A program made the translations under genes and the position numbers. A stretch of DNA of 64,000 nt from contig CAMWTP010000019.1 in the NCBI GenBank assembly GCA_947177165.1, forward strand, positions 1 through 64,000. Reading direction: 5' to 3'. Origin of the DNA: an uncultured Lachnospiraceae bacterium (GTDB taxonomy: Bacteria > Bacillota > Clostridia > Lachnospirales > Lachnospiraceae). Shown here piece by piece: positions 2,628 through 37,650 of the stretch. Below the pieces are notes generated by a model. It had not been told where the DNA came from. It saw only the letters and a list, made by a program, of their open reading frames with translations, and did not search any database. The stretch's first letter is position 1; each line of letters starts with the position of its first letter.

Positions 2628-2855
2628 ATGGGTGAGGAAACAAAACAGGATCTGCGGAGGCAGGAAGCTGTATTCAGTCACTGGCAGATTCTGCAAAGTA
2701 TACCTCAAAAAATGCGAACCATTCCTAAAGGATTGAAAAGGAGGCGTACAGGCTTTATAAATAAAACTGAGGTAATCTGCAAAGAAGTATACCATGGAAA
2801 TTATCATACAATATTAAAATTGAAGAAAGGAGAAATCAATGAATTTTTTGGATGA
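2628..2855 (+). CDS. possible small basic protein upstream of the NRPS
   Basis: The ATG at 2628 follows AAAGGAG (ending 2617) with suitable spacing. The 75-residue product is basic and helical, begins MGEETKQDLRRQE, and matches no family I know. The frame overlaps the start of the NRPS gene by 17 nt, and its last residues are encoded by the NRPS ribosome site, so the two could be translationally coupled. It could equally be an untranslated leader that happens to be open. I keep it as a weak call. Confidence 0.35.
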   Translation: MGEETKQDLRRQEAVFSHWQILQSIPQKMRTIPKGLKRRRTGFINKTEVICKEVYHGNYHTILKLKKGEINEFFG

Positions 2856-14030: not shown

Positions 14031-17000
14031 ATGGAAGAAAACAGAGAACAAACCATAAAAAGGCTGCGAGAGCAGCTCGTTGCATCGCAGGAGAGGGTAC
14101 GGTATCTTGAGAAGATTCTGGACGAGGCGGGAATTATTTATGACAGGCATTGCATTGAGTCAGGAGAAAATATTGAATGTACAGAAAATATCCAGAAACG
14201 GGAAGAGCCTCAAAAAAATCAGGGTTCCAGAATCATTTCAGAGACAATAACCAAAGACCACGCAAAATTTTTTTATTCAATGTTCAAGGGAAGAACGGAT
14301 GTTTATAGCAAAAGGGCAGCAAAACCCAATGCCAAGACGGGTAAGACGGGATATTATACACAGTGCTGGAACTTTTGGAAAGACGGCCTGTGTCCGAAGA
14401 AAAAAGGAGTCCAGATAAAGTGCGCGGACTGTGCAAACCAGCGGTATAGGCAGCTTACAGGTGATGACCTGATGAATCATCTGCTCGGGGCAAAGGAGGA
14501 CTGCTCCGATGTTATTGGTATCTATCCAATGCTTTCCAATGAGACATGCAACTTTTTGGTGTTTGATTTTGATAATCATGAAAGCGATAATCTGTTGGAC
14601 GATGATGCAAATACAGGCAATGGCTGGGTGGAAGAGGTAAATTCCATGCGTATGATCTGCATGCAGAATGATGTTGATGTACTGGTAGAGCGTTCACGCT
14701 CCGGGAAAGGCGCGCATATCTGGATATTTTTTGCGGAACCAATACCGGCTTCCATTGCCAGAAAGTTTGGCGATGCACTTCTCACAAAAGGTGCGGAATC
14801 CGTAAATCAAAAGACATTTCAATCCTATGACAGAATGCTGCCTGCGCAGGATCATATGCCGGCAGGAGGACTTGGCAATCTGATTGCACTCCCATTGCAG
14901 GGAAAGGCGCTGCGCGAAGGCAACAGTGCATTCATAGACGAAAATTGGAATGCCTGCCCCGATCAATGGAAACAGCTCCAGACAGTAAAAAAGCTGTCAA
15001 AGGCATCTGTGGAAGAGAAAATTAAAGCGTGGAATCATAGTGCGTTGAACTTTCTGGCGGGAGATTTGGGTGGAGAACGTGAAAATTCAGCAGAAGATGG
15101 GGAGAAGGAAAAGTCAAAACCATGGGAAAAGAAAGAAAAAAGATTTGACATCGCTGATGTGGACGGAATGTTAGAGATTACGAAGGCAAATCAGATTTTT
15201 GTAAATAATACAAACCTGAAACCACGGATGCAGAATCAGCTCCGACGGCTGGCCGCCTATAGCAATCCGCAGTATTATAAGAATCAGGCTATGGGATTTT
15301 CTGTGCGGGGAATTCCGAGGATAATCTCCTGCAGCAGCGATATAGACCATTACATCTGTCTTCCGCGGGGGTGTGAGGAAGCCCTGGTTCACATGGTAGA
15401 ACAATCCGGCATTGCATATACGATACAGGACTGCCGACAGGGAGGAAGGGTAATCAATGTAAGTTTTCAGGGTGAACTTTATCCAGAGCAGAAGCACGCT
15501 GCAGAGAAAATGCTTGCCTATGATAACGGTGTTCTTCATGCGGCGACTGCTTTTGGAAAGACGGCAGTAGGTGCGTATCTTGTTGCGGAACGAAAGGTCA
15601 ATACGCTGGTGCTGGTGCATAATACAGAGATTATGAAAAACTGGATGGAGGATTTTGAAAAGTTTCTGCTGATAGAGGAAGAACTGCCGCAATATACAAC
15701 GCCAAAAGGACGGACAAAAACAAGGAAGAGCGCGATCGGCAGGCTGAGTGCCAGCCACAATTCAATTACGGGAATCATTGATATTGCGATGATATCATCA
15801 CTGGGCAAAAAGGGCGAGATTCATGAGCTGGTGAAAAATTATGGTATGGTTATTATGGACGAATGCCATCACGGCGCTTCGCAGACGGCAGAAGAAGTGT
15901 TGAACGAAGTAAATGCCAGATATGTGTATGGCCTGACTGCCACACCAAAGCGCGACGACGGACAGGAGAAAAAAATTTTTATGCAGTTTGGGTCGGTTCG
16001 CTATCGGTATACAGCCAAAGACCGGGCGCAGAAGCAGGGGATCGGACATTTTGTCTATCCGAGGTTCACACACCTGACGCATGTGGACGGGGCTGTGATG
16101 AAAATAAACGATGCCAACAAACTTGTCATTCAGAGCAAACTCAGGAATCAACAGATTATAGGAGATGTCACGGACTGTCTGGCAAAGAAAAGAACCCCCC
16201 TGGTTCTGACAAAAAGCAGGGAACATGCCGCCTGTTTATATGAACATCTGCGAGAAAAAACAGACCACATTTTTTTGCTTCATGGCGGCAGGGGCGAAAG
16301 GGAAAGTGCTTTGATCAGACAGCAGATGAAGGCTGTTCCGGAAGATGAAACCATCGTTCTGGTAGCGACAGGGCAGTATATCGGGGAAGGCTTTAATTAT
16401 CCGAGACTCGATACGATGATGCTGACAATGCCTGTGGCATGGCAGGGAAATGTGGAACAATATTCCGGTCGTCTGCACAGGGATTACGAGACGAAAAAGG
16501 ATGTTATTATCTATGATTATGTGGATGCACATATTAAAGTGCTGGAAGGCATGTATCAAAAGAGGCTGCGGACATATAAAAAGATGGGGTATGAAATCTG
16601 TCTGAACCTGACATCAGAGAAACAGCAGGCAAATTCCATTTTCGATATTGAATCCTATAAACCTGTTTTTGAAAAAGATTTGGTTGAAGCAAACCGTGAA
16701 ATTGTGATTTCCAGTCCGGGATTGAATGTGCCCAGAGTAAAAGCATTTATAACACAAGTAAATGCAGTGCAGGAAAAGGGAGTTCAGATCGTGGTGTTTA
16801 CGCTGTCACCAGAATGCTATCCGGCGAACCGGACTGAAATCACCCGGAAGCTTGTCAGAGAGTTGGAACAGGCGGGAATACGAGTCCTGCCCCAAGAGGT
16901 TCTGCACCAACATTACGTCGTGATCGATCATGAAATCGTGTGGTATGGAAGCATGAATTTTCTTTCTGCGGAAAAAGAGGAGGATAATCTAATGCGTGTG

Positions 17001-17048
17001 GTCAGTGAGGAGATTGCGGAAGAGCTGATGGGGATAGAGACCAGGTGA
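14031..17048 (+). CDS. TOTE-type primase - DEAD/DEAH helicase - PLD-like protein
   Basis: 1005 residues. N-terminal coiled coil (1-30), then an archaeo-eukaryotic primase domain with the metal-binding pair FDFDN (D179, D181) and the later SGKGAHIW histidine motif, as in primases annotated from 'TOTE conflict systems'. A superfamily 2 helicase follows: Walker A FGKT (K510), DECH box (610-613), TATPKR, and motif VI QYSGRLHR (about 810-817). A cysteine pair cluster (CADCANQRY) sits between coiled coil and primase. The C-terminus is a phospholipase D-like nuclease fold, but its HxKxxxxD motif reads HQHYVVID (959-966), with His in place of Lys. Likely cytoplasmic, acting on nucleic acid; defence or mobile-element role inferred. 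Ribosome site AAAAGGGA. A standalone gene ending at a bidirectional terminator. Confidence 0.88.
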   Translation: MEENREQTIKRLREQLVASQERVRYLEKILDEAGIIYDRHCIESGENIECTENIQKREEPQKNQGSRIISETITKDHAKFFYSMFKGRTDVYSKRAAKPNAKTGKTGYYTQCWNFWKDGLCPKKKGVQIKCADCANQRYRQLTGDDLMNHLLGAKEDCSDVIGIYPMLSNETCNFLVFDFDNHESDNLLDDDANTGNGWVEEVNSMRMICMQNDVDVLVERSRSGKGAHIWIFFAEPIPASIARKFGDALLTKGAESVNQKTFQSYDRMLPAQDHMPAGGLGNLIALPLQGKALREGNSAFIDENWNACPDQWKQLQTVKKLSKASVEEKIKAWNHSALNFLAGDLGGERENSAEDGEKEKSKPWEKKEKRFDIADVDGMLEITKANQIFVNNTNLKPRMQNQLRRLAAYSNPQYYKNQAMGFSVRGIPRIISCSSDIDHYICLPRGCEEALVHMVEQSGIAYTIQDCRQGGRVINVSFQGELYPEQKHAAEKMLAYDNGVLHAATAFGKTAVGAYLVAERKVNTLVLVHNTEIMKNWMEDFEKFLLIEEELPQYTTPKGRTKTRKSAIGRLSASHNSITGIIDIAMISSLGKKGEIHELVKNYGMVIMDECHHGASQTAEEVLNEVNARYVYGLTATPKRDDGQEKKIFMQFGSVRYRYTAKDRAQKQGIGHFVYPRFTHLTHVDGAVMKINDANKLVIQSKLRNQQIIGDVTDCLAKKRTPLVLTKSREHAACLYEHLREKTDHIFLLHGGRGERESALIRQQMKAVPEDETIVLVATGQYIGEGFNYPRLDTMMLTMPVAWQGNVEQYSGRLHRDYETKKDVIIYDYVDAHIKVLEGMYQKRLRTYKKMGYEICLNLTSEKQQANSIFDIESYKPVFEKDLVEANREIVISSPGLNVPRVKAFITQVNAVQEKGVQIVVFTLSPECYPANRTEITRKLVRELEQAGIRVLPQEVLHQHYVVIDHEIVWYGSMNFLSAEKEEDNLMRVVSEEIAEELMGIETR

Positions 17049-19514: not shown

Positions 19515-19982
19515 ATGTTAATTACAATGATTCAAATTACAAGGTTAGAAAGTTCCATTACTAAATTAAAAGGAATAGCAAATATTACATTAGATGGTAT
19601 GGTTGCTATTCATGATATAAAAATACTACAACATAATCATGATATATTTCTTGCAATGCCTAGCAAGAAAACGAAAGCGAAAGCCTTTAAGGATATTGTT
19701 CATCCAATAAATAGTGAGGTTCGGACTATATTTGAAAAATTGATTTTTTTTGCTTATGAAGAGGCGGATAAAAAGCATTATACTTATTTAGAAATGTGTA
19801 TAATTGATGGTCATGAAATTGATAATTTATTAGATCAAAGAACAGAACATTTTAAAATTGCTAATTTTTCAACTACATCGTTTCAAAAGAAGTCACGGTT
19901 TGAATCCAAAGAAACTATCAATAAGAAACAAGAAGTAGAAAGCACAATAGATGAAAGCCTAATGAAATGGCTAGAAAGTTGA
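19515..19982 (+). CDS. SpoVG-domain protein with C-terminal extension
   Basis: Residues 5-85 match SpoVG: LKGIANITLDGMVAIHDI, IFLAMPSKKTK, FKDIVHPINSEVR. SpoVG proteins bind DNA and RNA. The usual protein is about 95 residues; this one has 155, the extra being a polar tail with FSTTSFQKKSRF and an acidic end (IDESLMKWLES). GGGAGG precedes the ATG at 19515. It ends 6 nt before the 2644-residue protein, so the two are one operon in an AT-rich block unlike its surroundings. A sporulation gene would not be expected beside decayed transposons; a nucleic-acid-binding partner of the giant protein is more likely (inference). A weak promoter, TTTATG-17-TATGAT, can be placed at 19447-19475. Confidence 0.85.
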   Translation: MLITMIQITRLESSITKLKGIANITLDGMVAIHDIKILQHNHDIFLAMPSKKTKAKAFKDIVHPINSEVRTIFEKLIFFAYEEADKKHYTYLEMCIIDGHEIDNLLDQRTEHFKIANFSTTSFQKKSRFESKETINKKQEVESTIDESLMKWLES

Positions 19983-19988
19983 GGGAAT

Positions 19989-22900
19989 ATGACAGGGAAA
20001 ATTTTGTTTATAAAGAAAAATTTTAAAGGTATATATGGATTTATACAATGCGAAGATGGTAATACATATTATTTCGATACATCTAGTATAGTAAAAGGCA
20101 ATTATCTTAAAGCGGGAGGTTATGTAGAATTTGATATTGTATTCTTAAATGATGAAAAAACACAAGCAGTAAATGTTAGACTCAAACATAATATAGAAGT
20201 ATATTCAGAATTAAAAAATGAAAAGAAATTAGAAATTTTAGAATTGTTTACTTCAGAACTGAAACAGAGTTCTTTTATTAATTGTGCTACTGTACCTAAA
20301 CTTTTGAAATCAAATGGCGTTGATTATAAAGAATATGCAAGTGATTTGGGTTCTTTTATGGAAAAATACTTTTCAGGAATATTTAGTTTTAGAAAGCACA
20401 CAGAAATTAATGGGAAAAAATACCCAGCAATTATCACTCAAATAAGTAATTTGTATAATGATATATCGTTGGAAAAGCGTAATCAGATAGAGAGCAGATT
20501 ACTTGATGAAATAAACAGTAAAGGTTTTTTTGAGGCGTGTAAGTTACCAATGATATTGCGGGAAGGTGATATTACACAGTATCGGGATTATGCAACTAAT
20601 ATGGATAGTTTTATAAATAATCTTTTCCCCAATAAGTTTATTCCCAAAAAGAACGTGCAGATAAATGGAAAGAAATATATTAAAATCTATGTTCAAAAAG
20701 AAAATGCGGATAAGTATATTGAAGACAGCTGGTTGGAGGAAACTACTAATGATAAAAAAAACTTTGTTCCATTAGATATGGAAGTAGTTACTGCTGTTAT
20801 GAATAAAATGGAGGAGATTATTGAAAAGAAGACTTATTTATTAGCATCTGATTTACCAAGTTTACTTAAAGAGTTTGGTATAGAAGACTATAAAATATAT
20901 GCTCGAACTATAGAGAATTTTATAGAAATATACTTATCAGATACATTTAAAATCAAGAAGAATATAGTAATTGATGGAAAAACATATTCTAATGTAATAG
21001 TGTTTAAGTATACAGCATATGATAAAAATTTTTTGATTAAAGTTAAGAATCTATATGATGTGTGTGATTATGAAGGAATTTTAAATCTGGAAGAATTATA
21101 TTCGATTACACCACTTACGTTAGGAATTGAAGGTATCCAATTACTGTTAAAAACCCTGTTAGCATATTTAGGAGAAAATGAGAAAAAGGCAGATTTAAAT
21201 GAGTTTCAGAAGATATTAATAAGAACTGAAAAAGTAATGGATTTGAAGCAGTATAAAGATGATGCACAACTTTTAACTTTAGGAGTGGAAACGTCATTTA
21301 TTTCTTCTGGATTAGATGATTTTAAGAGAATATTTGCAGATGTTCATAATGGAAAGAAAAATTTGAATCACAGTTGGAACGGTATTATTGAAAGATTTTG
21401 GAGTGCAAAAAATGAACTTGCTATATATCTTACCTGCTTATGGATTATCATATGTAAAAAAGAAAAATGTATTGATCTGTATATAGAGGAAGCAGGAAAA
21501 GAAAATAGAATTGATAAGCTTCCAACTATGTTAAAAATATATAAAGAGTTTGCTATGGGAGGGAAAATGTATATTTCCTCGTCTCTTAAAAGAAAGATAT
21601 TAGGTCGATGTTTTGATTGCAATGATATTTATACACTAATCAGTTCAGCAGAATTTTTTGACGAGGACAGTATTCCAGAAATAAAAGAAGTTATAGAGTT
21701 TTTAGAAGAAAAAAGGGCAATAGATAGCGAAGACCTAATTAGATGGTTCCATTCAGATATTGGTGCACTTGTATCTGAAAAGATTACAAATTATTATTGG
21801 TGGAAAAACTCACCACAAGGATTTAATAATAATATATTTAAAATATTAGCTTCTGTATGCTGGGAGTATCCGGCAGGATATTTTACAGAGATTATTTACA
21901 ATACTTCATGTCCAATGTTTGGTAGAAAGCAAAAAGAACAAATTCTTTGTGAAAATTTTTCTCAGATGTGTCAAAATACCAAAACGTACAAAAAAGCATA
22001 TGTTCTCCTTAATTACTTGTACTTAAATTTGATTGAAAATTTAAAGAATGAAGAATTAGATTCTATATGGAATGATTTGAAAAGTTGGATGAAGTCGCAA
22101 GTATTGCAACAGTTATCAACAGACATAAGAACAGCGTCTAGTATTGAAGTGTATAGATATGATAATGAGTTCAAACAAGAGCTAGAATTCTATTATTGCA
22201 GTAATTTTATAACAGAAAAAGTGAATAATAGTTCAGAAGATGAATTAGATGAATTTGTAGAGAAGTGTGAAAAGATTGGATTACATTTTATTACGCAATG
22301 GATTGTTGGTAATAGTGGAAGGGCTGTGGTGCAAGATGAAGAACGATATATCAGATCGTTAATATCATCTCAGCAGTTTCAGGAAGCAATTCGGTTTCTT
22401 CAGACGAGAACTTCATTTGAAAATAAAAAAAAGGTTGATTTACTTCGTGAAATATTGAGCGAAAATTTTAATATGTATCATATGAGTGAAAAAGCATATG
22501 CAATGTTTTCAAATATTATTCTGGTGGAAGTAGCGGAGAGTGCTCTATTGCATCATCTTGTATTTATGGAGGGAAATGTTCTTACAGCATTGATTGCAAT
22601 TTATGTGTATAAAAAAGAATGGCTTAAAGTTGCATTCCTTTATGCTCCATTTAAGAAAGTGCATTTTAACGCACATAGGAAATTTACTGATGATGTTGGA
22701 AAGAAATTGATTGACAATAATATTAATCCGAATCGTAATATGGACAGCCATTATGATGTTATGAGAGTTGCGCTAAAGGTTTGCGATTCAAAAGAATTTG
22801 ATGATTTTGTTAATTGGGCAAAGAAAATACCTGTTCCTAATACATCTAAAGTATATGTACCTAAGGTAAAGACTTTTGATAATGCATTAAAAAATATGTT

Positions 22901-25900
22901 ATCAGAATCAGATTATGATAATTGTTGGAGACAACTTGTTATGACAGCATTGCGAACAGATAATGATGATAAAATAGATATGTTACGTTACTGTATTATT
23001 GCATCATTTGTCGGAAGATATGGGATTGAGCAATTTAATCAAGTACTTCATGGTCTTGTAAAGAATAAATATTCTGTAAAATCTTATACAGATTATTATG
23101 CTAGCTTGTGGAAAGGGTTATCTAATGGAAGATATAGTCTTAACTTTTTAATATTAAGTCAAGCGTTGATGCAGAAAGTACCAGTTACATTTTGGAATAT
23201 GTTTTACGATATTGCAATATGTAAAAATCATGTGTTTTCGACGGATGACTTTGAATTTCAAACATGGAAAGAGGTGACACGTGAAGATCAGAAATTCTAT
23301 AATGAGGCACTTAATCAATACTATAACACTAGAGAAACGGTTTTTTTGAAAATTGCAGTTAGAATTCTATTAGAAAGTAATGAAAATTTAGTTCCATACT
23401 TTGAAAAATATCTTCCGTATTGTAATAGTAGTCGAAATAAGGATTTTCTCTTTTCTACTCTAATTCAATTAATATATAGAGGGAAATACTTACAAGAAAT
23501 TAGTGAATTGTTAGATTCAAATTACTGGAAATGTTCAGAAATAGAGCAGAAGCTGGCTCGAATATTATTCGCATTTTGTACAAATAATGTTGATAGTTTT
23601 TTTGAGGATGTTGAACAGATATTTAATATTGCTGAAATTGAGAGTTTTCGAAAAGATTATCTCAAGTGTGTGTTAAATTATCCAGATGTTTATATTGTAC
23701 AAACTATCCAGGAAAGTATATATGGGAATATTTATAAATATAAACTAATGGAACAGTTGTTGCAAATAAAAAATCAAGATAAGCAATTTTATGATTCAGA
23801 GTATACTGCTTTAAAAAGTATGGTTGATTCTGCCCCTGAAATTTTTGCCGATTGGAATGAAAACATAGAAGTAAAATGCTATTTACAATTTGTCATAACA
23901 TTTTATAGACAACAGCTTTATAAAAAATCAGATGATGTTGTATATATTAGAAATAGATACTGTAGAATTCTTGCTGCAAGTATGTTATTGGAAAGAGAAT
24001 TTGTACATTATAGTGATGATGATATTGTAGCATTGATGAAAAGAAATAAACATTTTACAGGAGTTTATTCTGGATATGAGAATTTTAAGAAAAGCTTGTA
24101 TGAATTTATAAATTTATGTAGCATTTCAAAAGAACTTAAGGCTGTTTTTGTTATAGGATTGATTTCAAACAAATGGAATCAATTTATTAGTCAAGGAAAT
24201 GAGTATGATAGAGAATCTCTTCAAGTAATAAACAAGATTATGAGTTATACTAATTATCGAGATTTAAATATTCAGATAATTAGTATGTTTATTATCGAAA
24301 AACAAGGAGATTTTGCAGAAAAAGAAATTAATTATATTGAATCTTGTTCACCAAATGTGGCATTAGTTTTAAAACAGATGAAATTAATAAGAGAAAATAA
24401 TATTAGTTATTACTCTCAATGCCAAAAATTAATAACAGGTATTTGCCGTTTATATGATTCAGACAAAGCAAAACGGTCGTATGATCATCTATGTTATTAT
24501 TTGAAAGTATTTATAAATGATTTAAAAAAATATTGGGATATGTATATGACTGCACTTATGACCACAAGTTATAAAAAAACTATTATAGTTAATTTGGCTG
24601 CGGACATCAGGCGCAACAAGATTAGTGCAGAAGAAACAAAACTTTGGATGCCTGTTTTGGAGTCAATGGGTGAGTTACAAATCTATTACTATCTTTTGGC
24701 TATCAGATATGCCATTGACAGAAACAAAAAGGAAGCGCAGTGGGCATATTTACAAGTTACATCATTTTCTGCATTGCCAAGTGAATGGAGTATTGAAAGA
24801 AATAATTTTGAAGCTTATATTTCTGGAAGACAGGAGTCTTTTTTTGTATCTAAAAACAGTTCGATTTCTATGTTGATTACTGAAAAAGAAGCTACAGATA
24901 TTTTTTTCCTACATAATGTAGATTCTAATACAAAGATAAATATTTCCGATGCTATAAATGCTTATAGGGATATTGTAAAAGGTGATATTGAAGATACTAT
25001 AAAATTTGATGCATATAAAAGACTTTTTACATTTATAAGAAAACCAGATGATTTATATGAAATATACAGAGAAACTGAAGGAAGAGGAGCAGAGGAAAGG
25101 AGAAAGAGACTTACTTATAATGAATTAGTTATAGAATATGGAAGCTTATTAATTGTTTTATCACAGGAATTTAGTATTAATCAAAAATTTGAAATATTGT
25201 CAGATATTTTTTCAGTTTATGATTTGTTAAATGATATTAACAAAGGCAAGAGCAATATTGTATATAGACTTAAAAGCGCAGAAGAAGTAGTACTTGAAAC
25301 TCCAGGAATGGATTTTAGAATTTGGATAAATAGGCAGGAGCGAATTAAAGAAATAATATTACATCCTATTATTGATTGTCTTATTTCTGTATTTGATGAA
25401 TGGATGTCATCTGTTACAAAGTGCACTTCTTTGCTAAGTTTTTGTACGACTGAGATGCAAAGACTGGAAGATTTAGAAAAATGGCGCAAGAATTGGAATT
25501 TGCCGCAACATTGCTCTGATTATGAAAATGCTTTTATTCATTCCATTGATGAAGAAATCAGAAGGTTAAAAAGTGGTGCAAATTTATCTATATCTGTAAT
25601 TAATAATGTATTGGAAGATCAGAGTATATTTTATCAAATAGAAAATATTGCTGACAACAGTAATTTGTCTATACTATTAAACAATACAAGCGATGAAAAT
25701 GCGGCACATTTAGAGGTGCTTATAGGAGTTAATGGGGCAGAGTTGGAAGCATATGAAGGGGCTTTTTTTAGCAATACGCTTGAATTGCGTCCAAAAGATA
25801 TTTGTGGACAAGTTTATAGGCTTCATAATCATGTTTTATCAAATTTGAAATATGGTGATAAGGTAGAGGTAATACTCAATGTTGTTGTAGGTAATAAAAT

Positions 25901-27923
25901 TATTTGCAATAATAGTAGACAGAATAAAATTTTTGATTATGTAGAGTTTACATGTGTTTTACAACCGGAGATAATTCCTGATACTAAAAAGTATGAAATT
26001 GATGTTCCTGCGTTTTCTAGAACAATCGAAGGTTTTGGAAGAAATTTAGAAAAGCAACGAATAAGGGACTATCTCGAACAACAGTTGGTTATTATTTATG
26101 GTCCATCTCGTGTTGGTAAATCATCATTGTTAAATTATGTTTCTAATCAATATGTGTTAAAGTACTCAGAAATGCATCCAGATACATCGATTATATGTAC
26201 GGTTGTCGCGGATGAGCAATGCAATAAAAAGGATTATGAAATAAGTATGTTAGATGGAAAAGCATTATTTTTTGATGATGAAATTCAAATAATGGACTAT
26301 TTGTTTATTACGCCAATGAGAGTAGCATTTGCAGAGAAAAGAAATATTCAACAGAGAAAAAGATGTAAAAATGTTGGAGAAAAACTGTCAGAATCGATAA
26401 AAGGAGAAATTAGAGAAATTTTAGATGAAGATGGAACTGTCAGAGAGAAGTATGCGGCTATTTCTCAGATCCTAGAAGAGAATAATTGTGAAGTATGGAT
26501 TCTTTTTGATGAATTTCAGGAAATGATCGGATGTTGGAAGGGTAGTTCAAATGAATTGGCAGAGTTATGTAGAGATATTAAGCATTATCAAAACAGTATA
26601 AAATTGATTTTTTGTGGATCAGATGCTCTGGTACGACTTTTTCAATGTGAAAATAATTCTGCTTGGAATGAGTTTAAAAATATAACTGCAAGCAATTGTG
26701 TGTTTGTAGGATCATTAAATGATAATGATTTTTATGAAATGATGAATGATCGTAATATCTGGAACGGACTATCGGAAAACATTCCGTGGTCAAGGGAAGC
26801 ATTAGAATTGTTGTATAAGTATACTGGAGGCAATGCCATATGTGGAAAACTATTTGGAAATGAGTTGTTGGAGAAGATGAAAGCAGGGGAATTTAGGCGA
26901 AGAAATTTTATATATCCATCGGACATCACTAAAACAGCATATGAGTTACTAAATAGCGAAATAGGAATGGTTAAAAATCTTCTTGTTCTGCATAATACAA
27001 AAAATTTGGATGATGAAATTCCATATCTTATTTTTATAGCATATGAACTTATGAACGATAGAAATAAGTCGGATGTTTCCTTGAGAAAAATTCGTGAATT
27101 TTTTATTTCGAAGAGTCATCATGATGTGGATTTAGCAATAAAAATTCTGATAGCACGTGGAATTTTGAAAGTTAATTCTAAGAAGCAGAGATATGGTTTT
27201 ACTACAATGTTTTATTATGATTTTTTTCGCAGTCAAGCAACAGACACACGAATGCAGCAACTTAGTGCTACTGAGCAACTCAGACCATTAGAAGAAAGGT
27301 CATGGCTTAGACAAATGAAAAATAGTATTTCTCAAAATACAATAGAAATTACTACAAGTAGTGCGATTGATATTATTGAGGCAATGCCAATAGAAGTAAA
27401 AATTGGGGTTCGTGAATATTATCAAAGAGAAGTTGGAACAATGCAAATTCTGAAAAACGATATTCTGTGTTGCGTTTTGAACAATTTTTATGAATATCTG
27501 GAAACATTGCGGGAACGTAGATCACATGGGAAATCAACACTCTCAAAATTTAAATTAGAAAATATAGAAATAAATAATGAATATGATATACAATTTTTAT
27601 TGTTTGCATACTTAAAGCCATTATTTCCCAAAGAAAGATTAGAAGTGAGTGAAGATACTGGGTATGCAACTGTTAGGACTGATATTTTAATAGATAAGAA
27701 TACATGTATAGAAGTAAAATGTTCAAGGTCAAGTATGAACGAGAATGCTTTAGAAAGTCAAATAAAGGAGGATATGGTTCATTATAAACAGAAAAATATT
27801 TTTTTCTTTATCTATGACAAGGATAAAATAGTAAGAAATCCTCCAGCTTTTAAAGAGTGTTATGAAAAAATGATGGTAGAAAAAAATATATTTGTTGTAA
27901 TTCACCAACCCAAAAAGTTATAA
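19989..27923 (+). CDS. giant CSD-LOTUS-STAND ATPase-PD-(D/E)XK protein (2644 aa), defence candidate
   Basis: Domains by eye: cold-shock-like OB fold (1-65, with KGIYGFI resembling RNP1); three repeats of a LOTUS/OST-HTH-like winged helix (about 80-150, 165-236, 265-340), each with a helix, a loop of the type DYKEYA, SFxxxxF and a final NGKKY beta turn; about 1500 residues of helical array without a clear repeat motif (TPR/HEAT-like); a beta-sandwich (about 1880-1990); a P-loop NTPase with GPSRVGKS (2038-2045) and Walker B ILFDEFQE (2171-2178) followed by FCGSD; a winged helix (about 2350-2415); and a C-terminal PD-(D/E)XK nuclease (D2565, E2575-V-K2577). The layout is like antiviral STAND NTPases: sensor array, ATPase switch, nuclease effector, with RNA-binding modules added at the front. 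No membrane segment or signal peptide. AT-rich coding (roughly 70 percent) suggests transfer. I do not know a named system with this order. Confidence 0.85.
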   Translation: MTGKILFIKKNFKGIYGFIQCEDGNTYYFDTSSIVKGNYLKAGGYVEFDIVFLNDEKTQAVNVRLKHNIEVYSELKNEKKLEILELFTSELKQSSFINCATVPKLLKSNGVDYKEYASDLGSFMEKYFSGIFSFRKHTEINGKKYPAIITQISNLYNDISLEKRNQIESRLLDEINSKGFFEACKLPMILREGDITQYRDYATNMDSFINNLFPNKFIPKKNVQINGKKYIKIYVQKENADKYIEDSWLEETTNDKKNFVPLDMEVVTAVMNKMEEIIEKKTYLLASDLPSLLKEFGIEDYKIYARTIENFIEIYLSDTFKIKKNIVIDGKTYSNVIVFKYTAYDKNFLIKVKNLYDVCDYEGILNLEELYSITPLTLGIEGIQLLLKTLLAYLGENEKKADLNEFQKILIRTEKVMDLKQYKDDAQLLTLGVETSFISSGLDDFKRIFADVHNGKKNLNHSWNGIIERFWSAKNELAIYLTCLWIIICKKEKCIDLYIEEAGKENRIDKLPTMLKIYKEFAMGGKMYISSSLKRKILGRCFDCNDIYTLISSAEFFDEDSIPEIKEVIEFLEEKRAIDSEDLIRWFHSDIGALVSEKITNYYWWKNSPQGFNNNIFKILASVCWEYPAGYFTEIIYNTSCPMFGRKQKEQILCENFSQMCQNTKTYKKAYVLLNYLYLNLIENLKNEELDSIWNDLKSWMKSQVLQQLSTDIRTASSIEVYRYDNEFKQELEFYYCSNFITEKVNNSSEDELDEFVEKCEKIGLHFITQWIVGNSGRAVVQDEERYIRSLISSQQFQEAIRFLQTRTSFENKKKVDLLREILSENFNMYHMSEKAYAMFSNIILVEVAESALLHHLVFMEGNVLTALIAIYVYKKEWLKVAFLYAPFKKVHFNAHRKFTDDVGKKLIDNNINPNRNMDSHYDVMRVALKVCDSKEFDDFVNWAKKIPVPNTSKVYVPKVKTFDNALKNMLSESDYDNCWRQLVMTALRTDNDDKIDMLRYCIIASFVGRYGIEQFNQVLHGLVKNKYSVKSYTDYYASLWKGLSNGRYSLNFLILSQALMQKVPVTFWNMFYDIAICKNHVFSTDDFEFQTWKEVTREDQKFYNEALNQYYNTRETVFLKIAVRILLESNENLVPYFEKYLPYCNSSRNKDFLFSTLIQLIYRGKYLQEISELLDSNYWKCSEIEQKLARILFAFCTNNVDSFFEDVEQIFNIAEIESFRKDYLKCVLNYPDVYIVQTIQESIYGNIYKYKLMEQLLQIKNQDKQFYDSEYTALKSMVDSAPEIFADWNENIEVKCYLQFVITFYRQQLYKKSDDVVYIRNRYCRILAASMLLEREFVHYSDDDIVALMKRNKHFTGVYSGYENFKKSLYEFINLCSISKELKAVFVIGLISNKWNQFISQGNEYDRESLQVINKIMSYTNYRDLNIQIISMFIIEKQGDFAEKEINYIESCSPNVALVLKQMKLIRENNISYYSQCQKLITGICRLYDSDKAKRSYDHLCYYLKVFINDLKKYWDMYMTALMTTSYKKTIIVNLAADIRRNKISAEETKLWMPVLESMGELQIYYYLLAIRYAIDRNKKEAQWAYLQVTSFSALPSEWSIERNNFEAYISGRQESFFVSKNSSISMLITEKEATDIFFLHNVDSNTKINISDAINAYRDIVKGDIEDTIKFDAYKRLFTFIRKPDDLYEIYRETEGRGAEERRKRLTYNELVIEYGSLLIVLSQEFSINQKFEILSDIFSVYDLLNDINKGKSNIVYRLKSAEEVVLETPGMDFRIWINRQERIKEIILHPIIDCLISVFDEWMSSVTKCTSLLSFCTTEMQRLEDLEKWRKNWNLPQHCSDYENAFIHSIDEEIRRLKSGANLSISVINNVLEDQSIFYQIENIADNSNLSILLNNTSDENAAHLEVLIGVNGAELEAYEGAFFSNTLELRPKDICGQVYRLHNHVLSNLKYGDKVEVILNVVVGNKIICNNSRQNKIFDYVEFTCVLQPEIIPDTKKYEIDVPAFSRTIEGFGRNLEKQRIRDYLEQQLVIIYGPSRVGKSSLLNYVSNQYVLKYSEMHPDTSIICTVVADEQCNKKDYEISMLDGKALFFDDEIQIMDYLFITPMRVAFAEKRNIQQRKRCKNVGEKLSESIKGEIREILDEDGTVREKYAAISQILEENNCEVWILFDEFQEMIGCWKGSSNELAELCRDIKHYQNSIKLIFCGSDALVRLFQCENNSAWNEFKNITASNCVFVGSLNDNDFYEMMNDRNIWNGLSENIPWSREALELLYKYTGGNAICGKLFGNELLEKMKAGEFRRRNFIYPSDITKTAYELLNSEIGMVKNLLVLHNTKNLDDEIPYLIFIAYELMNDRNKSDVSLRKIREFFISKSHHDVDLAIKILIARGILKVNSKKQRYGFTTMFYYDFFRSQATDTRMQQLSATEQLRPLEERSWLRQMKNSISQNTIEITTSSAIDIIEAMPIEVKIGVREYYQREVGTMQILKNDILCCVLNNFYEYLETLRERRSHGKSTLSKFKLENIEINNEYDIQFLLFAYLKPLFPKERLEVSEDTGYATVRTDILIDKNTCIEVKCSRSSMNENALESQIKEDMVHYKQKNIFFFIYDKDKIVRNPPAFKECYEKMMVEKNIFVVIHQPKKL

Positions 27924-29025: not shown

Positions 29026-29238
29026 AACAGAAAAGCGTACTTTTCTAGTGGACTAACACTCAAATCTGAAGTACTTGTCAATATTATGATTGACCGTTAG
29101 CGGGCAACACGAAAACCCGATATTCTTACCAGTGTATAACTGGTTGTTGGCAGACAACACTAAAATTAGCCATAAAGAGAGAGTATGTAGCACAATGGTG
29201 TTATTGCTCTCTCTTTAAATTTATTTACGGGGGATTAT
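29026..29238 (+). ncRNA. structured leader, copy 1, ending in an attenuator-like hairpin
   Basis: Lies between a consensus promoter and a small ATG frame. It starts with a small hairpin (AGAAAAGCGTACTTTTCT) and ends with AAAGAGAGAG (29174-29183) pairing with CTCTCTCTTT (29207-29216), followed by AAATTTATTT, an attenuator-like layout. About 370 nt downstream a shorter copy occurs. I recognise no known riboswitch or T-box motif. Function unknown. Confidence 0.5.
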
Positions 29239-29409: not shown

Positions 29410-29565
29410 AAGAACGAGCTTTTTTAGTGGAATGACACTATAAGCTGAAGTACCTGTTAATTTTGCGATTAACCGTTGACAGACAACACTAAAATTGACC
29501 ATAAAGAGAGAGTATGCAGCACAGTGGTGTCATTACTCTCTCTTTAAATTTACCAAAGAGGATGC
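29410..29565 (+). ncRNA. leader copy 2 (shortened)
   Basis: Repeats copy 1: TTTTTTAGTGGAATGACACT, then CTGAAGTACCTGTTAA, ACCGTTGACAGACAACAC, and the same hairpin AAAGAGAGAG (29503-29512) with CTCTCTCTTT (29536-29545). About 50 nt present in the middle of copy 1 are missing. The loop bases differ while the stem is kept, which suggests the stem matters. No promoter as good as that of copy 1 is visible before it. Confidence 0.5.
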
Positions 29566-32257: not shown

Positions 32258-32308
32258 AAATCAGAATCACCGCTAAACTGTCAGTTTTGTGGTAATTCTG
32301 ATTTTTTT
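32258..32308. terminator. bidirectional terminator at the 3' end of the ATPase-like gene
   Basis: AAATCAGAATCACC (32258-32271) pairs with GGTAATTCTGATTT (32291-32304), one mismatch, followed by a run of T on the plus strand and TTTTC on the minus strand. Confidence 0.7.
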
Positions 32309-34004
32309 ATCCGGATATTACCTTACAGTGCCTTTTATAGCATGCGATCCCATATTTGCGGATAGTTGTCATGCCGTCATCAATTAATTTTTCCGCATAA
32401 TTTCTGTCATTAATCTGTTTCAATGCCTCATGACATCCAGTATCAAATGCTGCCTTTTCTGCATATTTTAATTCGATAATAATGCCTATTCCTTTATCTT
32501 CAATTTCTATGCTGATGTCGCTGTAGCCATCCCCTGACTCCGCATTTGACTGGACATCCCATCCATCCATATTTCCAAAAAGACCAAGTAATATCCCGTG
32601 GTAAAAATTCTCTTTCATTTCCTTCCTGGCATTTGTATCACGGATGCTGATTGTCTTTTTCAGATAGGCATTGAACCCCTCTTCGATGGCCACCGTGTCA
32701 TTTTCCTGGAATGCCATGCAAAAACTTTCCAGCTTTTCCATGTTCTTTACTGTTTCCTGATTAAACCACTCACGGATCTGCTGGACAAAAATCCACTGTA
32801 TTTCCCTGTTTGGGATGACAAGATCTGTCAAATCCCCAGCCTGTGTGCTGCATTGTGTCAGATACCCTGTTGTGAACAGGATGCTCCACAGGTTTTCCGG
32901 TTCGGAATCCAGATCCCTGTAGGTCAGTTCCTGACGAATCATCTTTCGGATACTGTTTCCATTGATCAATTGTTCTATTTCATTTCTAGCTGCTGTTTTC
33001 GCTTTACTCAAAAATTTTTTTATGATATCATTGCTGCTTGTATTCACCCAGTAATTCTGTGGCTCTTTCACACTTCCGTCGCGCAGGTCGCCGCAATAAT
33101 TGATCACATCCCACGGACAGTATATTCCCAGATTTCCAAACAGATAGCCGTCATACCATTCCCTTACGGCATCATACTGGCTGAAAAGTCCATAATACTC
33201 CAGCATCTGCCTTACTTCTGTATCCGTAAAACCAAAATATTCCTTATAACGCACATCTTTTATGGTGTATACTTTAAAATTGTTCAGTCCGGTAAAGATA
33301 CTCTCCTTTGATATCCTAAGACACCCTGTCAACACTGCAAACTCCAGACTGTCATTTGTTTTAAATACAGCACCAAATAAAGTCCTGACCAGTCTGACCA
33401 TGTCATCGTAATATCCAGATCTGTAAGCATAATCAATAGGCACATCGTATTCGTCAATAAGCAGAATTGTTTTCTGCCCATAATGTTTCTGGAGAAAGCG
33501 TGACAACAACAGAAGACTGTTTTTCAACAGGCTGTCCTTCATTGTAAAAACGCCGTCACTGCCTACATGAATCATTGCATTATACTGCCGGCGCTCTGTT
33601 TCGGACAGGCAGCCACTCTCTGAAAGGAAGGGAAACCGTAGTGCCTCCTGTCCAATAATACTGCAGAGCATCTCTTTGGCACTGGAAAAAGAATCACTGG
33701 CAGCGTTTTTCAGGCTGATGGAAATAACCGGAAATTTTCCCATATATTTGTCACAGAGTTCCTTTTCCCCTGAAATTTCCAGCCCGTCAAACAAGACATT
33801 ATCGCTGCCGGTGTCAAAAAAGTGCTTCAGCATACTCATGTTCAAGGTCTTTCCGAAGCGTCTCGGACGTGTGAACAGGTTTACAAGAGCCATATTTTCC
33901 AGAAGATCCCTAATCATTCTCGTTTTATCCACATAATAAAATCCATCCCTTTGAATCCGTTCAAAATCTTCAATTCCCATGGGAAGTTTCCACTTCTTTT
34001 CCAT
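32307..34004 (-). CDS. AAA-ATPase-like / PD-(D/E)XK nuclease-family protein, copy 1
   Basis: 565 residues. The N-terminus carries the family hallmark FYYVDKTRMI and a Walker A variant in TRPRRFGKTLNMSML (about 45-60); Walker B ILLIDEYDVP near 180; central blocks CLRISKESIFTGLNN and REWYDGYLFGN; and a C-terminal PD-(D/E)XK-type domain with YSDISIEI and IIIELKYA (D...ExK). This matches Pfam AAA-ATPase_like followed by PDDEXK_9. Biochemical role unknown; the family is multi-copy in gut Clostridia and Bacteroidetes and is often linked to mobile DNA. Ribosome site AAAGAGG. The 5' flank contains a 32-nt copy of the end of the flavoprotein gene at 34889. Confidence 0.9.
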   Translation of the reverse strand: MEKKWKLPMGIEDFERIQRDGFYYVDKTRMIRDLLENMALVNLFTRPRRFGKTLNMSMLKHFFDTGSDNVLFDGLEISGEKELCDKYMGKFPVISISLKNAASDSFSSAKEMLCSIIGQEALRFPFLSESGCLSETERRQYNAMIHVGSDGVFTMKDSLLKNSLLLLSRFLQKHYGQKTILLIDEYDVPIDYAYRSGYYDDMVRLVRTLFGAVFKTNDSLEFAVLTGCLRISKESIFTGLNNFKVYTIKDVRYKEYFGFTDTEVRQMLEYYGLFSQYDAVREWYDGYLFGNLGIYCPWDVINYCGDLRDGSVKEPQNYWVNTSSNDIIKKFLSKAKTAARNEIEQLINGNSIRKMIRQELTYRDLDSEPENLWSILFTTGYLTQCSTQAGDLTDLVIPNREIQWIFVQQIREWFNQETVKNMEKLESFCMAFQENDTVAIEEGFNAYLKKTISIRDTNARKEMKENFYHGILLGLFGNMDGWDVQSNAESGDGYSDISIEIEDKGIGIIIELKYAEKAAFDTGCHEALKQINDRNYAEKLIDDGMTTIRKYGIACYKRHCKVISG

Positions 34005-36117: not shown

Positions 36118-37650
36118 ATGGAAAACAATCGTAGCTATATCGCAATCGACCTGAAATCTTTTTACGCCTCCGTTGAGTGTGTCGAGAGGCAGCTTGACCC
36201 GATGGACACAAACCTCGTGGTCGCGGATGCGTCAAGGACGGAAAAAACCATCTGCCTTGCGGTATCGCCATCTTTAAAGTCATTCGGCATATCAGGCCGA
36301 GCAAGGCTGTTTGAAGTGGTGCAGAAAGTCAGGGAAGTAAACACCCTGCGCAAAAGCAACGCCCCCGGCCATCAGTTTCTGGGGGAATCTTATCATACCG
36401 GGGAGCTGCAGGAGCATCCCGAATTTTCACTGTCCTATATCATTGCACCGCCCCGCATGGCATACTATATGGAATACAGCACCAAAATCTATGAGATCTA
36501 CCTCAGGTACATTGCGCCCGAGGATATCCATGTCTATTCCATTGACGAGGTATTCATGGACGTGACCGCGTATCTGAAAACATATTCCCTCTCTGCAAAA
36601 GAACTTGCCGCAAAGATCATACAGGATGTCCTCGCCCAGACGGGTATCACCGCCACTGCCGGCATAGGGACAAACCTGTATTTATGCAAGATTGCGATGG
36701 ACATTGTGGCAAAACATGTCGAGCCTGATAAAAACGGAGTCCGTATTGCAGAACTGGATGAAATGAAATACAGGGAACTTTTATGGGATCATCGGCCAAT
36801 TACGGACTTTTGGAGAGTTGGGCGCGGATATGCAAAAAAGCTTGCAGAACATGGGATGTTCACGATGGGTGATGTGGCAAGATGTTCTATTGGAAATGAC
36901 CAGAATTATTATAATGAAGACCTGCTCTACAGGCTGTTTGGCGTCAATGCGGAGCTTCTGATCGACCACGCATGGGGCTGGGAACCCACAACCATTGACC
37001 TTATCAAACAGTACAAACCTGAGACCAACAGCCTGTGCTCCGGCCAGGTACTGCAATGCCCTTATGCTACCGGAAAAGCAAAACTTGTTGTTAAAGAAAT
37101 GACGGACCTGCTCGTGTTGGATTTGGTAGAAAAGCATCTGGTTACGGACCAGCTGGTGCTTACCATCGGCTATGACATTGAAAACCTGTCCAATCCGGAA
37201 ACAGCCGATAAATACAAAGGCGAAGTCACCACAGACCGTTACGGGCGGAAAGTCCCCAAACATGCGCATGGGACTACGAATCTACATGGGCCATCTTCCT
37301 CAACAAAACTGATCATGGATGCAGTCATGGCACTTTATGACCGCATTGTTGACAAAAACCTGCTGGTACGGCGGATTACCGTGGCCGCAAACCATCTGAT
37401 TGATGACTCTGCTGTCCGTGCAGACAGACAGGGGGAATTTGTCCAGATGGATCTGTTCACCGATTATGAGGCGCTGGAAAAGCAGAAACAGGAAGAGGAG
37501 GCAAAGCTGAAAAAAGAACGCGCCCTGCAGGAAGCCGTTTTATCCGTAAAAAAGAAGTTTGGGAAAAATGCCATTTTAAAGGGCATGAACCTGGAGGAAG
37601 GCGCAACAGGCACACAGAGAAATAACCAGATCGGAGGGCACCGGGCATAA
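36118..37650 (+). CDS. Y-family DNA polymerase (UmuC/DinB type)
   Basis: 510 residues. Catalytic residues in the N-terminal block AIDLKSFYASVE (Asp11) and in YSIDEVFMD (Asp143, Glu144); then a little-finger region and a sliding-clamp-binding motif QMDLF (443-447), followed by a coiled, Lys/Glu-rich tail. Translesion synthesis enzyme, error-prone, expected to act with the beta clamp. Longer than Escherichia coli DinB and closer to the UvrX/YqjW-like Firmicute group, which is found with YolD, as here. Ribosome site AGGGGAGG. Its stop overlaps the next start by one base (TAATG). Confidence 0.93.
   Translation: MENNRSYIAIDLKSFYASVECVERQLDPMDTNLVVADASRTEKTICLAVSPSLKSFGISGRARLFEVVQKVREVNTLRKSNAPGHQFLGESYHTGELQEHPEFSLSYIIAPPRMAYYMEYSTKIYEIYLRYIAPEDIHVYSIDEVFMDVTAYLKTYSLSAKELAAKIIQDVLAQTGITATAGIGTNLYLCKIAMDIVAKHVEPDKNGVRIAELDEMKYRELLWDHRPITDFWRVGRGYAKKLAEHGMFTMGDVARCSIGNDQNYYNEDLLYRLFGVNAELLIDHAWGWEPTTIDLIKQYKPETNSLCSGQVLQCPYATGKAKLVVKEMTDLLVLDLVEKHLVTDQLVLTIGYDIENLSNPETADKYKGEVTTDRYGRKVPKHAHGTTNLHGPSSSTKLIMDAVMALYDRIVDKNLLVRRITVAANHLIDDSAVRADRQGEFVQMDLFTDYEALEKQKQEEEAKLKKERALQEAVLSVKKKFGKNAILKGMNLEEGATGTQRNNQIGGHRA

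What the first reader, a model, noticed from the sequence alone, without database searches (positions are those of the whole stretch)
19515..27923. SpoVG plus giant CSD-LOTUSx3-helical array-ATPase-PD-(D/E)XK protein: candidate new defence system
The sequence shows two tightly coupled genes (6-nt gap) in an AT-rich block flanked by dead transposons and a TOTE-type gene. The giant protein joins RNA-binding-type modules (cold shock fold, three LOTUS/OST-HTH-like repeats) to a STAND-like switch (GPSRVGKS, ILFDEFQE) and a C-terminal nuclease (D2565, E2575, K2577). Known antiviral STAND proteins carry their nuclease at the N-terminus and sense protein; here the front end suggests sensing of RNA or of stalled transcripts, with SpoVG as nucleic-acid-binding partner. 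I know of no described system with this layout.
Basis: partly seen in the sequence, partly recalled or inferred. Interest (0 to 1): 0.92.

Follow-up and report, generated by a model that had tools for sequence, protein, structure and literature searches.

The report
SpoVG-linked giant ATPase with swappable nuclease
A bacterium carries a two-gene unit, a small nucleic-acid-binding-type protein plus one very large protein, that looks like an undescribed type of anti-virus sensor whose cutting tool at the end has been swapped during evolution.

Summary
A SpoVG-family gene (19515-19982) is followed after 6 nt by an intact 2,644-aa gene (19989-27923): cold-shock head, three winged-helix repeats, ~1,500 residues without a known domain, beta-rich module, P-loop ATPase, C-terminal DpnII/MboI-type nuclease (Pfam 1.6e-27). 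I found 12 relatives, mostly Clostridia. All 12 end instead in a domain with an RNxxAH motif (HEPN-type RNase by weak profile hits), so the window's nuclease looks like an effector swap. SpoVG precedes the giant in 2 of 8 relatives with readable upstream DNA, and the three paired SpoVGs share a C-terminal K-W-[LF] tail absent from four housekeeping SpoVGs. Of four relatives whose neighbours I scanned, three lie by known defence genes (type III R-M; LmuB plus Eco29kI R-M; NsnA/NsnC). Best reading: a defence switch sensing nucleic acid or an RNP at its N-terminus and firing a C-terminal nuclease, the reverse of the usual STAND order. LOTUS identity is unproven; RNA sensing and antiphage action are inference. 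New variant of a known kind.

The parts
19515..19982 (+). SpoVG-family protein, 155 aa (core residues 1-83 plus a C-terminal extension)
   Evidence: Pfam SpoVG 1.9e-24; the genome has a separate housekeeping-type SpoVG at C4:98607-98852
19947..19979 (+). C-terminal tail IDESLMKWLES, similar in form to the tails of the two other giant-linked SpoVGs
   Evidence: alignment (three tailed sequences; four housekeeping ones lack it); no statistical test made
19989..27923 (+). giant protein, 2,644 aa
   Evidence: homologues
19989..20198 (+). cold-shock (CSD) head, residues 1-70
   Evidence: Pfam CSD 4.3e-5; Foldseek to Bacillus cold-shock proteins
20202..20456 (+). winged-helix (LOTUS-like) repeat 1, residues 72-156
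   Evidence: family repeat profile; model
20454..20708 (+). winged-helix (LOTUS-like) repeat 2, residues 156-240
20763..21023 (+). winged-helix (LOTUS-like) repeat 3, residues 259-345
21024..25574 (+). long region without known domain, residues 346-1862; called a helical array by inference only (no model made)
   Evidence: homologous to relatives; no TPR or other repeat family at Pfam E<=1 in the window protein
25575..25958 (+). beta-rich module before the ATPase, residues about 1863-1990
   Evidence: aligned region of relative L013 modelled as seven strands; the window stretch itself was not modelled
26034..26888 (+). P-loop ATPase (AAA+/STAND clade), residues 2016-2300
   Evidence: Foldseek of the L013 model to ORC/Cdc6 ATPases
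26100..26123 (+). Walker A GPSRVGKS (K2044)
26496..26519 (+). Walker B WILFDEFQ
   Evidence: DEFQ invariant in all 10 rows of A5; the L012 fragment, not in A5, reads DNFE
26889..27308 (+). region after the ATPase core, residues 2301-2440; last part shared with the relatives
27474..27908 (+). C-terminal DpnII/MboI-type REase, residues 2496-2640
   Evidence: Pfam PF18742 1.6e-27; segment 2441-2644 has no match better than E 0.03 in 11 relatives
27681..27719 (+). catalytic D2565...E2575-V-K2577
   Evidence: identical in three relatives of the REase that are not part of giants
14031..17048 (+). neighbour, probably not part of the unit: AEP-TOTE primase / SF2 helicase / PLD nuclease protein
   Evidence: Pfam; PADLOC PrimPol 5.4e-64

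Best explanation
A modular anti-invader switch. The N-terminal head (cold-shock OB fold plus winged-helix repeats), helped by its SpoVG partner, is the recognition end and most likely binds single-stranded nucleic acid or an RNP made during infection. Binding is passed along the ~1,500-residue body to the P-loop ATPase, whose ATP-driven change (probably self-assembly) brings C-terminal nuclease domains together. In the other family members that nuclease looks like a HEPN-type RNase; in the window it has been replaced by a DpnII/MboI-type DNA endonuclease, so firing would cut DNA, either the invader's or the cell's own (abortive infection). Shown by sequence: domain order, different effectors on one chassis, intact REase residues, recurrent SpoVG pairing, low GC and sporadic distribution, defence-gene neighbours of some relatives. 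Inferred: trigger, ATP-driven activation, the target cut, and protection against phage.
For: Intact catalytic motifs. 12 of 12 relatives have an RNxxAH domain at the C-terminus, with weak hits to HEPN families in several, while the window has the REase; tree and segment searches place the window body next to L021, a HEPN type (94/98 support). That nuclease effectors are often exchanged on a constant switch in defence proteins is recalled. SpoVG pair in window, L013 and L019; the three share a terminal tail; all three have CSD heads. Neighbours of relatives: type III MTase 8.6e-199, REase_III 8.9e-81 and PDC-S11 1.4e-122 (L013); LmuB 3.9e-248, MTase_II 5.9e-139 and REase_II 3.5e-73 (L015); NsnA 3e-44 and NsnC 3e-74 (L019). 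Conjugation coupling protein near L018. Sporadic: no giant found in the 35 other same-genus genomes; the block is at 28-32% GC. SpoVG of Listeria is an RNA-binding protein (abstract of PMC4959528).
Against: No functional data. Neighbours of only 4 relatives were PADLOC-scanned (10 proteins picked by eye; the single one from L020 had no hit at 1e-5); L012, L014, L016-L018, L021, L025 and L036 were not. L025 is a solitary gene among genes that read by eye as housekeeping. SpoVG is absent from 6 of 8 relatives with readable upstream DNA. Downstream window genes are a Fer4_5 protein and, by eye, a thioredoxin, not defence genes; an ATPase-PDDEXK_9 fusion lies at 32.3-34.0 kb. nSTAND1 is below cut-off in the window protein, and Foldseek gives ORC/Cdc6-like AAA+ rather than a named STAND. 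HEPN calls are weak: unrelated families score alike (DUF6548 0.01, Apiosidase 0.015), L013 hits no HEPN family, the PDB profile search gave nothing. LOTUS is not significant. Nothing favours RNA over ssDNA or protein as trigger.
Confidence: 0.55

Rival explanations
1. Protein-sensing switch: the 1,500-residue body recognises a phage protein, as repeat arrays do in Avs proteins, and the CSD/winged-helix head with SpoVG only anchors the complex on ribosomes, RNA or the nucleoid.
For: The body is the largest part and the head is exchanged (CSD head, an unrelated ~110-aa head, or neither). Avs5 has C-terminal repeat domains of TPR, Sel1 or PPR type as sensor (passages of PMC12931631).
Against: The head, not the body, tracks with SpoVG; no repeat family was recognised in the body of the window protein.
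Confidence: 0.3
2. Guard or restraint: the dedicated SpoVG is a bait or brake on the giant. Loss or titration of SpoVG (for example by phage transcripts or a phage RNA-binding protein) releases the nuclease, making the pair toxin-antitoxin-like.
For: SpoVG is the small upstream gene in all three pairs, 6 nt (window), 14 nt (L019) and 14 nt or a 4-nt overlap (L013, depending on start) from the giant, with a similar terminal tail; the genome has another SpoVG.
Against: 6 of 8 relatives with readable upstream DNA lack the partner, so the giant is not generally restrained by it.
Confidence: 0.2
3. Part of a TOTE conflict system together with the AEP-helicase-PLD gene 2.5 kb upstream.
For: The giant has a CSD OB fold at one end of a long body, as in the TPR-CSD protein shared with TOTE; the AEP-TOTE gene is on the same strand. 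TOTE means TPR, OB, TBP, effector (passage of PMC12458937).
Against: No TBP over the cut-off in the genome as held (best E 0.147, another contig), no TPR match in the window protein, the AEP-TOTE protein matched in none of the relatives' loci compared, and no ORF over 134 aa lies in the 2.5 kb between.
Confidence: 0.07
4. Not defence: an RNA-maintenance or stress protein of unknown cellular role, with defence neighbours only because it rides the same mobile islands.
For: One member is solitary in a region that reads as housekeeping (L025) and one lies close to what reads as lysS (L036), both by eye.
Against: Different nuclease effectors, sporadic presence, low GC and defence neighbours in three of four scanned relatives.
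Confidence: 0.15

Closest known systems
Antiviral STAND NTPases (Avs/AVAST and relatives)
   Same: P-loop switch of the AAA+/STAND clade joined to a long region and a nuclease; relatives found beside defence genes
   Different: Order reversed: STAND NTPases are described as N-terminal effector, central NTPase, C-terminal sensor (PMC12931631 passage). Here the putative sensor is N-terminal and the nuclease C-terminal, with a nucleic-acid-binding-type head and, in some members, a SpoVG partner.
HEPN-STAND proteins with C-terminal cold-shock OB folds (Bacillus cereus example in PMC3710099, one passage)
   Same: The same three ingredients: HEPN, STAND, CSD
   Different: Mirror-image order (N-terminal HEPN, STAND, C-terminal CSD). 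The passage mentions neither LOTUS, SpoVG nor a REase version; homology between the two was not tested.
TOTE conflict systems (TPR, OB, TBP, effector)
   Same: CSD OB fold with a long body and an effector; AEP-TOTE gene nearby
   Different: No TBP over cut-off, no TPR match, single polypeptide, SpoVG partner
CoCoNuTs (McrBC-like type IV systems predicted to target RNA; PMC11090510 passages)
   Same: CSDs plus nuclease and NTPase, RNA targeting proposed
   Different: CoCoNuTs have McrB-like GTPase/McrC pairs and coiled coils; no McrB or McrC family match here
Argonaute-associated Helical-REase (PADLOC Aga_Helical-REase; the long form of the name is recalled)
   Same: The REase domain (best 2.7e-11, residues 2526-2643)
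   Different: Only the effector domain is shared

Membership tests
Antiviral STAND NTPase | STAND-type P-loop NTPase | tested here: inconclusive
   nSTAND1 over cut-off in L013 (7.8e-8), matched at E<=1 in 8 of 10 members, below cut-off in the window protein (0.004); Foldseek of the L013 model to ORC/Cdc6 AAA+
Antiviral STAND NTPase | N-terminal effector and C-terminal sensor | tested here: not met
   Nuclease at 2496-2640 at the C-terminus, CSD/winged helices at the N-terminus; rule quoted from PMC12931631
Antiviral STAND NTPase | Protection against phage | not testable with these tools
   needs an experiment
OST-HTH/LOTUS | Match to the OST-HTH profile | tested here: inconclusive
   None in the window protein at E<10. 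Relative L020: Pfam 3.9e-4, 21 v 23.8 bits (at E<=10 the same search also rang in 6 of 14 control genomes, none over cut-off), but no match to my profile of bacterial OST-HTH proteins (E 2.8) and hhalign E 0.099. Repeats v OST-HTH by hhalign: E 0.031 (probability 1.6%) and 0.011 (3.7%), HTH control 0.16
OST-HTH/LOTUS | HTH core with two C-terminal strands (PMC2848206 passage) | tested here: met
   each repeat modelled as helices then two strands, mean pLDDT 77.3, pTM 0.38; no entry named LOTUS or OST-HTH among the 50 Foldseek rows shown
DpnII/MboI-type REase | Family profile and D...ExK motif | tested here: met
   1.6e-27; D2565, E2575, K2577 conserved in three relatives of the domain
HEPN (relatives' C-terminus) | R-x(4-6)-H motif at the end of a helix of a helical bundle (definition recalled) | tested here: met
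   RNxxAH in 12 of 12; helical model of L013 with the motif near the end of helix 893-913
HEPN (relatives' C-terminus) | Match to HEPN profiles | tested here: inconclusive
   DUF4145 in 4 of 12 (best 5.7e-4), HEPN_MAE_28990 in 2 (0.012), HEPN_RiboL-PSP in 1 (0.0013), HEPN_Apea 0.12, HEPN_Swt1 0.15; unrelated DUF6548 0.01, Apiosidase 0.015, SMC_Nse1 0.029. That DUF4145 belongs to the HEPN clan is recalled
SpoVG | SpoVG profile | tested here: met
   Pfam 1.9e-24, 86 v 29.6 bits; NCBIfam septation regulator SpoVG 85.7 bits, under its equivalog cut-off of 108
TOTE conflict system | TBP component | tested here: not met
   own genome as held, best E 0.147, below cut-off, on another contig
TOTE conflict system | TPR | tested here: not met
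   no TPR family in the window protein at E<=1; TPR_LAA1_C in one of 10 members at 0.11
CoCoNuT / type IV McrBC | McrB-like GTPase and McrC | tested here: not met
   no such Pfam match in the giant or SpoVG at E<=10

The most novel reading that the evidence does not exclude
A separate class of bacterial immune sensor: a reversed STAND-like giant whose N-terminal cold-shock/LOTUS-type head, clamped by a dedicated SpoVG with its own docking tail, surveys RNA or transcription intermediates and fires an interchangeable C-terminal nuclease, RNase (HEPN) in the other lineages found and DNA-cutting (DpnII/MboI-type) in this one. It would link an RNA trigger to DNA destruction and give SpoVG an immune role.
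Probability: 0.3. Interest if true: 0.86.

Novelty: new variant of a known kind. Interest (0 to 1): 0.72.

Why it matters
If right, it adds an undescribed giant defence family in Firmicutes with the switch wired in the opposite direction from known antiviral STAND proteins, a natural effector swap (RNase to DNase) on one chassis, and a dedicated SpoVG partner in immunity, of which I saw no report in the listings searched. It makes two questions testable: what a CSD/LOTUS-type head senses in a bacterium, and whether the same trigger can be joined to RNA or DNA destruction.

Tried and rejected
Close relatives in plasmid and phage records: only the REase domain matched (one Paenibacillus plasmid, one Clostridioides phage). 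Viral collection: three scans, one locus in all (searches gave the same contig as L013 and L022, with the L019 giant, gave none). Solved structures by sequence: none for the giant; the switch profile gave only generic P-loop hits, the HEPN-domain profile only a histone hit at E 0.95.

Considered and dropped: (a) LOTUS as established fact: window Pfam and profile-profile tests do not reach significance. (b) The Brr2 helicase matches that top the Foldseek list for the C-terminal model: rmsd about 25 over about 1,000 columns, meaningless. (c) An RNPPAF string in the window REase that the aligner set against the HEPN motif: it lies inside the REase domain and is not kept in the three REase relatives. 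(d) Two weak matches (G620, E 4.2e-4, residues 1833-1962; G484, E 9.4e-4, residues 335-400) were not followed and are not in the 12. (e) The REase-only hit in G012 lies in a 273-residue open frame, not in a giant. (f) Empty-site search: congener G002 is about 96% identical from window 29.4 kb on and alike from 28973, but its contig ends there; congener G003 is alike only from 29603 on, with no similar DNA before it in the stretch fetched. This shows a synteny break, not an empty site. (g) Promoters and terminators: counts near the shuffled expectation.

Limits: the genome-contig scan used two short peptide patterns and so undercounts; the genome search scored only a few candidates per genome and its draws overlap between calls. 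The CSD-SpoVG association was noticed after the fact and rests on nine readable loci (CSD head 3 of 4 if the weak tandem CSD-like matches of L021 count, other heads 0 of 5).

Full report
OBSERVATION. The two genes are present exactly as described: 19515-19982 (155 aa) and 19989-27923 (2,644 aa), same strand, 6 nt apart. Pfam gives SpoVG (1.9e-24) for the first; for the second CSD (4.3e-5, just under cut-off), ATPase_2 (4.1e-7, under cut-off), AAA_22 (9.2e-6, under cut-off) and C-terminal DpnII-MboI REase (1.6e-27, residues 2496-2640). The block is 28-32% GC against 39-53% outside 17-31 kb. No giant was found in the 35 other same-genus genomes searched (one, G012, has a REase relative only), so the unit is an accessory, probably acquired one.

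RELATIVES. I found 12 relatives besides the window: G130/L018 and G194/L012, L013 on a 125-kb virus-labelled contig, L014-L017 and L019-L021 (L018 of that call is the G130 protein again, 100% identical), L025 and L036. L012, L014 and L016 are fragments. By record title the named ones are Clostridia-type and one Bacilli. The family is rare in what was searched: 2 other genomes of 392 drawn from the order (E<=0.001), 1 other of 391 from the class (E<=1e-20), 1 other of 397 from the family (E<=1e-15), none but two weak partial matches in 398 from the phylum, and 8 loci in a pattern-limited scan of 84,980 genomes. Homology is long: window against the G130 protein matches over residues 1204-2417 (7e-45), 773-990 (9e-13) and the N-terminal repeats (best 1e-6).

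EFFECTOR. Residues 2441-2644 of the window protein match none of the 11 relatives searched (best E 0.03), whereas all 12 relatives end in a domain with R-N-x-x-A-H (motifs also printed). These 12 domains scanned against Pfam gave weak hits to several HEPN-type families: DUF4145 in 4 members (best 5.7e-4), HEPN_RiboL-PSP in 1 (0.0013), HEPN_MAE_28990 in 2 (0.012), HEPN_Apea 0.12, HEPN_Swt1 0.15; unrelated families score alike in single members (DUF6548 0.01, Apiosidase 0.015), and L013 hit no HEPN family (DUF4145 as a HEPN-clan family is recalled). In an unrooted 13-row tree of the switch region the window protein is sister to L021, an RNxxAH type (94/98, not starred). With 12 against 1, the simplest reading is that a HEPN-type RNase was replaced by a DpnII/MboI-type DNA endonuclease.

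HEAD AND SPOVG. SpoVG lies directly before the giant in the window, in L013 (Pfam 4.6e-23; ORFs overlap by 4 nt, or 14 nt apart if the giant starts at its first ATG, sequence) and in L019 (14-nt gap). A SpoVG profile finds none upstream in L015, L017 (796 nt readable), L018, L021, L025 and L036; L020 (127 nt readable) and the three fragments cannot be judged. That is 2 of 8 relatives, 3 of 9 with the window. Pfam's SpoVG profile found none anywhere in the genomes of L015, L017, L018 and L021, and one elsewhere in those of L020 and L025. Heads differ: CSD head in the window, L019, L013 and L020, with two weak CSD-like matches in L021; an unrelated ~110-aa head in L015, L017, L018 and L036; neither in L025. 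So SpoVG is seen with CSD heads in 3 of 4 readable loci and with other heads in 0 of 5; this was noticed after the fact and the sample is small. The window's genome has another SpoVG (1.5e-38). Window and L019 partners are 45% identical, the window partner and the four housekeeping SpoVGs 35-42%; the L013 partner is less like the window one (32%) than like housekeeping ones (40-43%). All three partners end in similar tails, IDESLMKWLES, LDEDLKKWLEG and QDDNWQKWFNS, that the four housekeeping SpoVGs lack (no statistical test). By segment, residues 1-72 of the window giant match best L019, 73-345 L013 then L019 (both SpoVG-bearing), 346-700 L020 then L019, 701-1000 L019 closely followed by others, and every segment from 1001 to 2440 matches best L021, which has no SpoVG. 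Head plus SpoVG, body and effector therefore look like three exchangeable modules.

STRUCTURE. A five-sequence AlphaFold2 model of window residues 1-350 (mean pLDDT 77.3, pTM 0.38) shows a five-strand OB fold and three repeats of helices followed by a beta hairpin. Foldseek matches the OB part to Bacillus cold-shock proteins (E 1.8e-4, target TM about 0.8). The repeat topology agrees with the description of OST-HTH (passages of PMC2848206), but the window protein has no OST-HTH hit, relative L020 has one below cut-off (E 3.9e-4) that my own profile of bacterial OST-HTH proteins does not repeat, and profile-profile comparison is not significant (E 0.011, probability 3.7%, HTH control E 0.16). 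I therefore write LOTUS-like. A model of L013 residues 1997-2948 (mean pLDDT 75.5, pTM 0.58) shows a beta-rich module, an ATPase and a helical C-terminal part; the meaningful Foldseek matches among the 50 rows shown are ORC/Cdc6-type AAA+ ATPases (1w5t, target TM 0.53), while the Brr2 hits above them are artefacts of length; no HEPN entry is among those rows. The 1,500-residue body and the window REase were not modelled.

CONTEXT. In the window an AEP-TOTE/helicase/PLD gene lies 2.5 kb upstream but matched in none of the relatives' loci compared, and no TBP is found over cut-off. I chose 10 neighbour proteins of 4 relatives by eye for PADLOC: L013 has type III MTase, type III REase and PDC-S11 upstream; L015 has LmuB and an R-M pair (REase Eco29kI by Pfam 5.1e-69) ending 22 nt before the giant; L019 has NsnA and NsnC 5-8 kb downstream on the other strand; the one L020 protein had no hit. 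The other relatives were not scanned in this way. L018 has a conjugation coupling protein and a ClpP-like gene about 6 kb downstream. L013, L015 and L018 have, right after the giant, a ~900-aa WYL-related protein and an HD-domain protein: 3 of 11 relatives with readable downstream DNA, and not the window.

MECHANISM. The order of parts suggests head (recognition) to body (relay) to ATPase (switch) to nuclease (output). SpoVG of Listeria binds RNA (abstract of PMC4959528; a section heading there reports weak, nonspecific ssDNA binding); that cold-shock and OST-HTH domains are RNA-binding types is and passages. An RNA, ssDNA or RNP trigger is plausible, but nothing here tests it. In the window the output is expected to be DNA cleavage.

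KNOWN SYSTEMS. STAND NTPases are described as N-terminal effector, central NTPase, C-terminal sensor (PMC12931631 passage); this family is reversed. A mirror-image combination (N-terminal HEPN, STAND, C-terminal CSD) is mentioned for Bacillus in PMC3710099 (one passage). TOTE and CoCoNuT fail on TBP/TPR and McrBC. In eight literature searches of open papers (capped listings) I saw no title or abstract that describes this layout or a SpoVG-linked defence gene; subscription papers, including the TOTE review, were not readable, so absence from print is not shown. Apart from the REase and CSD parts no PADLOC model matched the window giant and none the two relatives tried at 0.01; NCBIfam gave only weak partial hits far under their cut-offs.

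VERDICT. Real, coherent and apparently undescribed; a new variant of the STAND-like modular defence kind, with the RNA-sensing, LOTUS-headed reading open rather than shown.

Noticed in passing
window 2839-11784 (+): 2,981-aa NRPS with three adenylation and two condensation stretches and a terminal NAD-binding reductase-type domain
   Followed up: no
window 192-1685 (+): BlaR1-type M56 peptidase (Pfam 1.9e-49)
   Followed up: no
window 32307-34004 (-): Predicted AAA-ATPase with C-terminal PDDEXK_9 nuclease; another ATPase-nuclease fusion
   Followed up: no
window 36118-37650 (+): ImpB/MucB/SamB-type polymerase
   Followed up: no
window 29146-29223 and 29475-29552: 78-nt direct repeat, 91% identical, 329 nt apart, near where synteny with congeners breaks
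   Followed up: partly
L013 18834-22286, L015 17639-21027, L018 17536-20888: ~900-aa WYL-related protein plus ~228-aa HD-domain protein right after three RNxxAH-type giants; possible regulators or nucleotide-cleaving partners
   Followed up: partly
L015, L017, L018, L036, a ~110-aa stretch near the N-terminus of the giants: an alternative head domain in place of the cold-shock head, duplicated in L018; the L018 protein has no Pfam match in its N-terminal part at E<=0.1
   Followed up: partly
L033/L034 (genome of L019): a further SpoVG-type gene encoding two SpoVG domains in tandem (229 aa)
   Followed up: no
genomes of L015, L017, L018, L021: no SpoVG match at E<=0.001; these are MAGs by record title and may be incomplete
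   Followed up: no
L037 3186-3962 (Clostridioides phage ES-S-0173-01): phage-borne 259-residue frame related to the giant's REase domain, 46% identical
   Followed up: no
L013, L017, L036 downstream of the giants: similar-looking ~400-aa lipoprotein-like and other genes recur (by eye); suggests a shared mobile element or island type
   Followed up: no
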